From positions 1-28,679 of the IMG/VR virus record IMGVR_UViG_3300005933_000055: DNA of 28,679 nt. One strand, given 5' to 3'. Below the pieces are notes generated by a model. It saw only the letters and a program-made list of their open reading frames with translations. It did not search any database and was not told the DNA's origin. Position 1 is the stretch's first letter, and every line of letters begins with the position of its first letter. A program made the position numbers and the translations under genes. Source of the stretch: a virus. Of this stretch, positions 7,178 through 9,889 are shown in pieces.

Positions 7178-7774
7178 TTATCCTCTTATGATTTTCTTAG
7201 AATCTGCCCAGACTTTTGTCTTAGAAGCACCAACGAATTGTTCTGTATTTAGAAATAGCGCAATGTCCCACTCAGATGGTTGAATCTGAATAAATCTACT
7301 TCTTACATTACTACTTAGATATCGCTTAAATGTAGGTTGAAATAATTTAAATTTTTCAGCACCTTTTAGCACACCATATGAAAGTTTCAATTTTGTACTC
7401 TCATCATATCTGCTATTTGTAGTAATATCATATAGCGAGTCCATTAATTGTGCGCGTAGTTGCAGTGGCAGATAGTGCAAATTCAACCCATAAAAACCAC
7501 CTTCGGCGCGGTCGACTGGAAAGATCAATGGGAACGTATCATAATATGGTAGACTTTTCTTATGCTTTGGGTCATACATAAAGAAATACATTTTGCCTAT
7601 TGCAAATCTATTTTTAAGTCTGCTTTTATCATCTTTAGCTATTGTGTTTTCAGATACCTTCCCGAGGTCCCTTGCCTTGTCGCGGAACCATTCACGAGCA
7701 GTAGAAGTACGAGCAGGGATCTGTCCTGCACGAACACCTTTTAGTAATAGATCATCAAATAATGATGCTGGCAT
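7178..7774 (-). CDS. 2: Conserved T4-type virion protein, probably gp2-like DNA end protector
   Basis: A 198-residue basic protein. Central segments MYFFMYDPKHKKSLPYYDTF and GFYGLNLHYLPLQLRAQLMD, and the C-terminal PSEWDIALFLNTEQF with KVWADSKK, belong to a family I recall from cyanomyoviruses, usually annotated as the gp2 DNA end protector or as a structural protein. T4 gp2 (274 residues) shields packaged DNA ends from RecBCD. Its position one base after gp4 supports a head-completion role, since T4 genes 2 and 4 are neighbours. I could not compare it directly with T4 gp2, so the family is more certain than the function. Confidence 0.6.
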   Translation of the reverse strand: MPASLFDDLLLKGVRAGQIPARTSTAREWFRDKARDLGKVSENTIAKDDKSRLKNRFAIGKMYFFMYDPKHKKSLPYYDTFPLIFPVDRAEGGFYGLNLHYLPLQLRAQLMDSLYDITTNSRYDESTKLKLSYGVLKGAEKFKLFQPTFKRYLSSNVRSRFIQIQPSEWDIALFLNTEQFVGASKTKVWADSKKIIRG

Positions 7775-8240: not shown

Positions 8241-8254
8241 ATCAAATCTTTCTG

Positions 8255-8262
8255 TATAAATA
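8255..8262 (+). promoter_or_regulatory. T4-type late promoter box, rightward
   Basis: Exact TATAAATA, with predicted start near 8268, about 36 bases before the gp48 ATG. It forms the left arm of a 9-bp inverted repeat (TATAAATAG / CTATTTATA). Confidence 0.75.
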
Positions 8263-8278
8263 GAATTACTAATAAAAC

Positions 8279-8286
8279 TATTTATA
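8279..8286 (-). promoter_or_regulatory. T4-type late promoter box, leftward
   Basis: Exact TATAAATA on the minus strand, with predicted start near 8273, about 33 bases before the TTG of gp4. It faces the rightward box, so the two predicted transcripts overlap by a few bases at their 5' ends. Confidence 0.75.
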
Positions 8287-8303
8287 ACAGTACAGTGGAT
8301 CAA

Positions 8304-9227
8304 ATGCCAGATAGAATACGGTTTAAGCCAATAAGGGACGAAATTGCAATAGCGGCAAGAACAAAGGTGTCTGCTAATCTTTCATTCCCAATAGAAGATA
8401 ACGATTATGGTATGCTGTTAATGTTCAGGGAATATCAGTATCGTACCTCATCAGAACGAGGATTTTCGCAAATAAATAGCGCAGGATCAAACGTGACTGA
8501 TACAATCTTTTTGCCGCTGCCTGCTAATATAGCAGATACATTTAATGTTAGAGTACAAAGATTTGAACAAGGTACTACGGGAGATGTTATTTCTAGCTTG
8601 ATTTCTGGAATAAATATTGATGATCTTAGTGTAGGCAATATAACAGGTGCAATAACTACAGGTGCACTAAGAAATATGCCATCAGTACAAGGTTCTAATC
8701 TGGAAGAAATAACTGGTAATTTATCAAAGGATCTTGCTTTTCTAGCAAGAAAGGGTATTGATCAAGCATTTCCTAATCAAGGAAGAAATATAGATGCTGG
8801 CACAGGAACATTAGTAAACCCCAAGGCCGCTCTTTCATTTGATGGAGTTGAAATGAAAACTCATAGCTTTGATTGGTCATTGGTACCTAAGAATTCTCAA
8901 GAGTCCGTTAATCTTCAACTTATATCTGATACAATAAAAAGAAATATGTTACCTAGTTATGTAAACACATCAGTAATTCAAAGGGCTATGTTTAAATATC
9001 CTGCCATGGTTGACATCTTTTTCGTGGGTATTGATCCAGGATATTATTTCCATTTTAAAACTGCTATGATACAAACGTTCTCAGTTAACTTTACTCCTAA
9101 CGGTAATGCTGTGTTACGTGGCGGCCGTCCAGCTGCGGTGCAGATGCAAATGAATCTTATTGAGTCTGATATACACACATCAGAAGATTATGGTGGTTCC
9201 AGCATTGACGTAAACACCGATGCTTAA
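8304..9227 (+). CDS. 48: Baseplate tail tube cap gp48
   Basis: A 307-residue protein of the T4 gp48/gp54 tube-cap group. The N-terminal LSFPIEDNDYGMLLMFREY and IFLPLPANIADTFNVRVQRF followed by TTGD match cyanomyovirus gp48, which has 'LLLPLP-x-x-x-DSYNV'. The C-terminal half has the tube domain: FDGVEMKTHSFDWSLVPKN, then MLPSYVNTSVIQRAMFKYPA and MVDIFFVGIDP. T4 gp48 (364 residues) binds the hub and, with gp54, sets the tube initiation site. I start at ATG 8304; an in-frame GTG at 8295 is possible. It is the first gene of the rightward late run, behind the 8255 box. Confidence 0.82.
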   Translation: MPDRIRFKPIRDEIAIAARTKVSANLSFPIEDNDYGMLLMFREYQYRTSSERGFSQINSAGSNVTDTIFLPLPANIADTFNVRVQRFEQGTTGDVISSLISGINIDDLSVGNITGAITTGALRNMPSVQGSNLEEITGNLSKDLAFLARKGIDQAFPNQGRNIDAGTGTLVNPKAALSFDGVEMKTHSFDWSLVPKNSQESVNLQLISDTIKRNMLPSYVNTSVIQRAMFKYPAMVDIFFVGIDPGYYFHFKTAMIQTFSVNFTPNGNAVLRGGRPAAVQMQMNLIESDIHTSEDYGGSSIDVNTDA

Positions 9228-9258: not shown

Positions 9259-9645
9259 ATGTCAAAATATTTTTCAAATTATCCCATTATACAATATCAA
9301 GGGCAAGCAGTACGTGATATTACTAGACGCAGTAAAGTAATTGATGAAACACTTCGCGACCCTTATATCTTTTTGCCATATACGGTTAGAGAAGGTGAAA
9401 AGCCAGAAGATATTGCATATTATTATTACGGATCGGTAGATGATACCTGGTTAGTCTTGTTCTCAAATAACATAACTGATCCCTACACTCAATGGCCTAT
9501 GAATGAAGAAGAATTCAATCAATATTTTATAAACAAATATGCTAAGATTTCCCGCCGTGAAGGACTTGATGTTCTTCAGTGGGGGCAAAACGAAAATAGC
9601 ACAGAAAATATCGTATACTACTATAAGGAAATTGATAATGGTTGA
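9259..9645 (+). CDS. 53: Baseplate wedge gp53, N-terminal part (split gene)
   Basis: A 128-residue protein matching the first part of T4 gp53 (196 residues), the wedge subunit that joins the hub periphery. EGEKPEDIAYYYYGSVDDTW then LVLFSNNITDPYTQWPMNEE corresponds to T4 'SPRPEEISYAIYGNPQLYW' and 'VLLMCNDNYDPYYGW'. The start ATG follows AGAGGT. The frame stops at TGA 9643-9645, where homologues continue into a helical C-terminus. That C-terminus is found in the +1 frame immediately after. Confidence 0.85.
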   Translation: MSKYFSNYPIIQYQGQAVRDITRRSKVIDETLRDPYIFLPYTVREGEKPEDIAYYYYGSVDDTWLVLFSNNITDPYTQWPMNEEEFNQYFINKYAKISRREGLDVLQWGQNENSTENIVYYYKEIDNG

Positions 9646-9889
9646 TGTAGTAAGAATTAGCCCTGAGTCATTTAGAACACTTTTCCTGCGCAGAGAAGAT
9701 GAGGTTATTATAGTAACTGAGGAAGGTAGAAGAATGACAATTCGTCAGATAATACCTGAGGAATGGAGACCTATTAGAGTTTATGAATACGAAAAACAGA
9801 TAAACGAAAATAAAAGAGAAATTATATTGATCGATAAATTACATCGCAATCAGGTAGTAGAGGAATTTAGAAGGTCGCTTCGTGAATGA
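9638..9889 (+). CDS. Baseplate wedge gp53, C-terminal part as separate ORF
   Basis: An 83-residue protein from ATG 9638, which overlaps the gp53 N-terminal ORF by eight bases and has TAAGGA (9624-9629) at normal distance. The end, YEYEKQINENKREIILIDK then LHRNQVVEEFRRSL, matches the C-terminal 'YE-x-x-x-NENKR-x-I-K/L' helix of cyanomyovirus gp53 as I recall it. The first half (MVDVVRISPESFRTL) resembles the hinge before that helix. The two products therefore probably rebuild one gp53 fold as two chains, or are joined by frameshifting. The stop overlaps the gp27 start (ATGA). Confidence 0.75.
   Translation: MVDVVRISPESFRTLFLRREDEVIIVTEEGRRMTIRQIIPEEWRPIRVYEYEKQINENKREIILIDKLHRNQVVEEFRRSLRE

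What the first reader, a model, noticed from the sequence alone, without database searches (positions are those of the whole stretch)
8255..8286. Two late promoters facing each other as a 9-bp inverted repeat
TATAAATAG (8255-8263) and its reverse complement CTATTTATA (8278-8286) are separated by 14 bases. With T4 geometry the rightward start falls near 8268 and the leftward start near 8273. The boxes therefore point towards each other, and each polymerase must cross the other promoter. Occupancy would be mutually exclusive and the two RNAs would share a few complementary 5' bases. This could balance the hub/wedge arm against the tape-measure/head-completion arm.
Basis: partly seen in the sequence, partly recalled or inferred. 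Interest (0 to 1): 0.62.

Follow-up and report, generated by a model that had tools for sequence, protein, structure and literature searches.

The report
Facing late promoters between gp4 and gp48
Two phage "late" promoter boxes that point at each other sit in a 63-base gap between a head gene and a tail gene, and the same facing arrangement recurs beside the head gene in many distantly related T4-type phages, including T4 itself, so it is a real and deeply conserved layout whose regulatory effect has not been shown.

Summary
TATAAATAG (8255-8263) and CTATTTATA (8278-8286) fill the only divergent gap of the window, between gp4 (head closure, leftward) and gp48 (tail tube cap, rightward). Such a pair arose in 7 of 1000 window shuffles and 1 of 20000 shuffles of the gap.

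Among 165 non-redundant gp4 loci, facing boxes occur in 66 (T4 consensus) or 116 (also the published CTAAATA variant), against 0.15 and 0.36 expected. Back-to-back pairs occur in 2 and 4. T4 has the pair in its 47-bp gene 4/53 gap. The partner gene differs (gp48, gp53, others), while the geometry stays.

The spacer varies from 6 to 33 bp without helical phase, and the predicted 5' RNA overlap from -4 to +23. So the "few complementary 5' bases" are not conserved, and a fixed dimer operator is unlikely. Complementarity does not extend beyond the boxes and is often broken inside them, arguing against an RNA hairpin as the general cause.

Best reading: two working late promoters, each at a normal distance from its own gene, interleaved in a short gap. 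Polymerase competition follows from steric overlap. That it balances two arms of assembly genes is untested.

The parts
8255..8263 (+). rightward T4-type late promoter box TATAAATA (8255-8262) plus G, serving gp48
   Evidence: sequence; facing pair conserved beside gp4 in relatives
8278..8286 (-). leftward T4-type late promoter box TATAAATA (8286 to 8279) plus G, serving gp4
   Evidence: sequence; facing pair conserved beside gp4 in relatives
8264..8277 (.). 14-bp spacer holding both predicted start sites; length and sequence not conserved
8268..8268 (+). predicted start of the gp48 late transcript (inferred from T4 geometry; 36-nt leader)
   Evidence: T4 rule from PMC1524935
8273..8273 (-). 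predicted start of the gp4 late transcript (inferred from T4 geometry; 33-nt leader)
   Evidence: T4 rule from PMC1524935
7776..8240 (-). gp4-like head closure/completion protein; TTG start at 8240-8238
   Evidence: phrog_218 E=8e-57; 48% identical to T2 gp4, 49-77% to others in the alignment
8304..9227 (+). gp48-like baseplate tail tube cap
   Evidence: phrog_230 E=1e-42; homology to Sinorhizobium phage phiM12 gp48
7178..7774 (-). gp2-like DNA end protector, next gene of the leftward arm
   Evidence: phrog_429 E=2.5e-56
9259..9645 (+). gp53-like baseplate wedge protein, N-terminal part, next gene of the rightward arm
   Evidence: phrog_232 E=1.4e-29

Best explanation
The inverted repeat is two separate T4-type late promoters (gp55-type TATAAATA boxes), one for the leftward gp4-gp2 operon and one for the rightward gp48-gp53 operon, packed face to face in a 63-bp gap so that each mRNA leader contains the other promoter's box. 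Each box keeps a normal distance to its own gene (leaders of 33 and 36 nt), and facing each other is the arrangement that allows this in so short a gap. Because the polymerase footprints overlap, one template copy can fire in only one direction at a time. I regard this competition as an unavoidable side effect that may keep the two arms co-expressed, not as a demonstrated control device. Shown: sequence, geometry, recurrence, conservation. Inferred: promoter activity, start sites, exclusion.
For: Facing pair in 66/165 gp4 loci with the strict box and 116/165 with the published CTAAATA variant, expected 0.15 and 0.36; back-to-back 2 and 4. T4 has it in the 47-bp gene 4/53 gap. In most relatives scanned whole, the strict pair occurs once per record, at gp4. 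The partner gene is gp48 in 53 clusters, gp53 in 9 and another gene in 2. Leaders are 15-52 nt (gp4) and mostly 17-64 nt (neighbour), in the range of other late boxes in T4 (mostly 8-29 nt) and in relative G014. The fixed-geometry and RNA-stem rivals fail: spacer 6-33 bp, no helical phase (Rayleigh p about 0.57); flanks not complementary beyond permutation; 22/67 pairs have non-pairing -13 bases and 23/116 have unlike -12 bases, yet both are valid boxes. Most loci without the pair have no gap between the two genes (25 of 44 measured at 10 bp or less).
Against: No 5'-end data were found for any of these gaps. The facing layout is also kept where gaps are 85-98 bp, in which side-by-side promoters with leaders of about 30 nt could roughly fit, so packing alone may not explain it (inertia is possible). 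Back-to-back pairs occur in relatives L004 and L034, so the layout is not essential. The set is a seeded sample, not random, and the CTAAATA extension was adopted after looking at the loci.
Confidence: 0.8

Rival explanations
1. The facing geometry is selected as a regulator: competition between two strong, clamp-activated promoters on one template couples or balances the two operons, or lowers noise in their ratio.
For: Facing outnumbers back-to-back 66:2 (strict) and 116:4 (relaxed) and persists in gaps up to 98 bp. At E. coli sigma70 bidirectional promoters, one binding event excludes the other; strong activation in one direction represses the other and lowers noise (PMC12825309). T4 late promoters are activated by the sliding clamp (PMC2988020). 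Facing puts both upstream clamp sites outside the gap (my inference).
Against: Spacer length drifts freely. A phage cell holds many template copies, which would average out exclusion. Back-to-back relatives exist. The same E. coli study found no competition at basal activity. No expression data.
Confidence: 0.25
2. The repeat works as RNA: read-through transcripts form a hairpin that hides the ribosome binding site, while late-initiated RNAs lack the 5' arm. This is the known control of T4 genes e, soc, 49 and I-TevI.
For: Known mechanism in T4 (PMC3014915). In T2 the gene 4 Shine-Dalgarno pairs with the complement of the gene 53 one in the read-through fold. Box arms lower modelled SD accessibility slightly across relatives (about 0.05, p 0.01-0.04). 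Long perfect palindrome in L007.
Against: No flank complementarity beyond permutation. Shuffling the 5' flank does not change SD accessibility. Box mismatches go uncompensated in 22/67 and 23/116. Window folds are ordinary against shuffles (z -0.99 and -0.64).
Confidence: 0.1
3. The 9-bp inverted repeat is an operator for a dimeric repressor or other DNA-binding protein.
For: Perfect symmetric 9-bp arms in the window.
Against: Spacer 6-33 bp with no helical phasing, arms identical to the phage late promoter consensus, and single boxes of the same sequence upstream of other late genes.
Confidence: 0.03
4. Chance: AT-rich sequence yields two boxes by accident and only one or neither is used.
For: TATAAATA is only about 1.7 times over-represented in the window.
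Against: Recurs at the same place in 66-116 of 165 loci against 0.15-0.36 expected.
Confidence: 0.02

Closest known systems
T4 late promoters (gp55/gp33/gp45-dependent, TATAAATA at -13 to -6)
   Same: Same 8-bp box, upstream of the same gene classes, at similar distance to the start codon
   Different: Usually described singly; here two face each other with overlapping initiation regions
T4 gene 4/gene 53 gap (and inh/segE-uvsW gap)
   Same: Facing late boxes in a 47-49-bp divergent gap
   Different: Spacer 7 bp and partner gene gp53 in T4; 16 bp and gp48 here. I found no paper in the open library that describes the facing geometry
Bacterial bidirectional promoters (Warman, Grainger and colleagues)
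   Same: One short DNA stretch drives divergent RNAs; binding in one orientation excludes the other
   Different: Those share one near-symmetric -10 element with starts usually 18 bp apart and pointing away; here there are two separate boxes with both starts between them. The T4 gene 26/51 gap (TATTTATAAATA) is the shared-box type
RBS-sequestering hairpins with an internal late promoter (T4 e, soc, 49, I-TevI)
   Same: A late box inside an inverted repeat near a ribosome binding site; the I-TevI site also shows up as a facing match in T4 (144430)
   Different: One-directional; here genes lie on both sides and pairing is not maintained
Face-to-face promoters with transcriptional interference (lambda PR/PRE, 186 pR/pE)
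   Same: Convergent initiation within one region
   Different: Those are 320-340 bp apart and interfere by collision or occlusion (PMC6593788); here overlap means promoter competition

Membership tests
T4-type late promoter | 8-bp box TATAAATA | tested here: met
   both boxes perfect
T4-type late promoter | position upstream of a late gene with a short leader | tested here: met
   33- and 36-nt leaders to gp4 and gp48
T4-type late promoter | phage encodes late sigma gp55, gp33 and clamp gp45 | not tested
   window is a 28.7-kb fragment; clamp loader genes gp44/gp62 and regA are present, gp55/gp33/gp45 were not sought in a complete relative
T4-type late promoter | RNA 5' end 6 nt downstream of the box, late in infection | not testable with these tools
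   needs transcript mapping
Bidirectional promoter (shared symmetric -10) | one shared -10 element with starts 7-25 bp apart pointing away from each other | tested here: not met
   two separate boxes 16 bp apart; predicted starts 5 bp apart with the RNAs overlapping by 6 nt
Bidirectional promoter (shared symmetric -10) | polymerase binding in one orientation excludes the other | not testable with these tools
   expected from footprint overlap only
RBS-sequestering hairpin with internal late promoter | SD or start codon paired within the stem | tested here: inconclusive
   T2 yes; window gp48 no, gp4 weakly
RBS-sequestering hairpin with internal late promoter | stem pairing maintained across relatives | tested here: not met
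   uncompensated mismatches 22/67 and 23/116; no flank complementarity
Dimeric operator | fixed half-site spacing | tested here: not met
   spacer 6-33 bp, Rayleigh p about 0.57

The most novel reading that the evidence does not exclude
Face-to-face late promoters beside gp4 form a conserved competitive switch: on each replicating template only one direction can fire, possibly chosen by the orientation of the sliding clamp and so by replication fork direction, and this holds head-completion and baseplate gene expression in a fixed ratio across T4-type phages.
Probability: 0.1. Interest if true: 0.8.

Novelty: new variant of a known kind. Interest (0 to 1): 0.5.

Why it matters
The parts are ordinary T4 late promoters, but the facing layout is strongly maintained beside gp4 across very divergent phages and different partner genes, including the model phage T4. 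It offers a natural set of divergent promoters with constant orientation and freely varying spacing (6-33 bp), so whether polymerase competition matters for strongly activated promoters can be tested in a standard laboratory system. It also complements recent work on bacterial bidirectional promoters with a different geometry.

Tried and rejected
Operator for a dimer: rejected by free spacing. RNA hairpin as the general cause: flank permutation, SD-accessibility modelling and mismatch counts do not support it, though it may add to T4 gene 4. Conserved antisense 5' overlap: rejected, overlap -4 to +23 nt. Apparent leftward boxes at +65 inside gp4 of cyanophage-like relatives were not counted: they follow from the conserved codons for IIYR. 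The T4 records (NC_000866, AF158101) carry no promoter features at this gap. The T4 genome review with the late-promoter table is not held. Paper searches found no description of facing late promoters at 4/53 or gp4/gp48, which does not prove absence, since many T4 papers are in journals not held. Seed bias: the first gp4 query included 21 residues read from the promoter gap itself; three other gp4 seeds starting at the annotated start codons still gave 25/107 strict and 70/107 relaxed clusters.

Full report
Observation. The gap between two divergent genes at 8241-8303 holds TATAAATAG (8255-8263), a 14-bp spacer and CTATTTATA (8278-8286). The leftward gene is gp4-like (head closure, phrog_218) and the rightward gene gp48-like (tail tube cap, phrog_230). 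Dinucleotide shuffles give such a pair in 7 of 1000 whole windows and 1 of 20000 gaps. Single boxes are only mildly enriched.

Relatives. From gp4 and gp48 searches of IMG/VR and a spread of isolate phages I collected 284 loci; 277 had enough upstream sequence and fell into 165 non-redundant clusters. In the 120 bp upstream of gp4, a facing pair of NATAAATA boxes occurs in 66 clusters (0.15 expected) and a back-to-back pair in 2 (0.22 expected). Allowing the CTAAATA variant reported for phage Aeh1 (PMC1524935, PMC2988020), a facing pair occurs in 116 (0.36 expected) and a back-to-back pair in 4. I adopted that variant after seeing it in the loci, so the strict count is the cleaner figure. On a gp4 tree the strict facing state covers 9 of 9 in the T-even clade, 36 of 39 in the window's clade, and about half of the clade of the Methylophilales phage Melnitz; it needs at least 14 changes, at least 5 of them forced by well-supported branches. 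Most loci without the pair have no intergenic gap or gp4 in another gene context (44RR, Campylobacter phage).

T4. The gene 4/53 gap (77338-77384, 47 bp) is TGGATTCTCCTTATAAATAGATAATATATTTATAAACAGGAGGGCCC: facing boxes 7 bp apart, each flanked by the Shine-Dalgarno of its gene. The inh/segE gap (49 bp) also has a facing pair, and the 26/51 gap (50 bp) has an overlapping back-to-back box, TATTTATAAATA. So all three divergent gaps of about 50 bp found in T4 that hold late boxes on both strands carry them interleaved. In the 26/51 layout the leaders are 12-15 nt; in the facing 4/53 layout 21-23 nt, the common length for T4 late boxes. This supports packing at normal leader length as the simplest cause. 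Against packing as the whole story, facing pairs persist in gaps of 85-98 bp.

Whole-record control. In 32 relatives' records, the strict facing pattern with up to 30 bp between boxes occurs in 26, in most of them once and at gp4; back-to-back occurs in 10. The extra facing matches in T4 include 144430-144461, beside I-TevI, a known RBS-hiding hairpin with a late promoter (PMC3014915), so a facing match by itself can have another cause.

Tests between explanations. (i) Operator: spacers run from 6 to 33 bp without helical phase. (ii) Hairpin: bases flanking the boxes pair no better than permuted partners; 22 of 67 pairs have non-pairing -13 bases and 23 of 116 have unlike -12 bases, while both remain valid boxes; modelled SD accessibility in read-through RNA is unaffected by shuffling the 5' flank. 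T2/T4 and L006/L007 do show strong local structures, so an added effect there is possible. (iii) Antisense 5' overlap: not conserved. (iv) Two promoters: both boxes stand at promoter-like distance from their own genes, and the partner gene can change (gp48, gp53, other) without loss of the layout.

Mechanism. Late polymerase with gp55 at one box would cover the other box or its start (T4 late open complexes are site-specific and the clamp extends the footprint 13 bp upstream, PMC2988020; the size of the overlap is my inference). Overlapping promoters interfere by competition (PMC6593788). At E. coli bidirectional promoters, competition matters only when one direction is strongly activated, and it then lowers noise (PMC12825309). 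T4-type late promoters are strongly activated (established knowledge of the T4 system), so competition is plausible, but many template copies per cell would dilute it. A facing layout also leaves both upstream sides free for the sliding clamp, which in T4 sits directly behind the polymerase; this is a further reason why it might be tolerated or favoured (inference).

Verdict.

Noticed in passing
window 9259-9645 and 9539-9889: gp53 is split into two ORFs in different frames. The split is identical in contigs L258 and L259, and relatives L005, L006 and L260-L265 also carry the two parts in different frames, while L008 and phiM12 (L278) keep one frame. It looks like a natural gene fission or frameshift in this lineage.
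   Followed up: partly
L006 versus L007, gap upstream of gp4: The 15-bp spacer between the facing boxes (GAAGTGACTTTATTC) is exactly reverse-complemented in L007, as if flipped between the inverted arms; the only such case among 107 distinct spacers.
   Followed up: partly
T4 116429-116478 (gene 26/51 gap; T4 record NC_000866, loci L289 and L304): An overlapping palindromic late box TATTTATAAATA could serve both genes, like a bacterial bidirectional promoter.
   Followed up: no
cyanophage-like relatives such as L082, L087, L283: gp4 and its divergent neighbour overlap by about 2 bp, with no gap. Where a gp4-directed late box is found (e.g. L082, L087, L088) it lies inside the neighbour's coding sequence.
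   Followed up: no
gp4 coding sequence of relatives, codons for IIYR: The conserved codons ATT ATT TAT AGR mimic a leftward late box at about +65 of gp4, a trap for box scans.
   Followed up: yes
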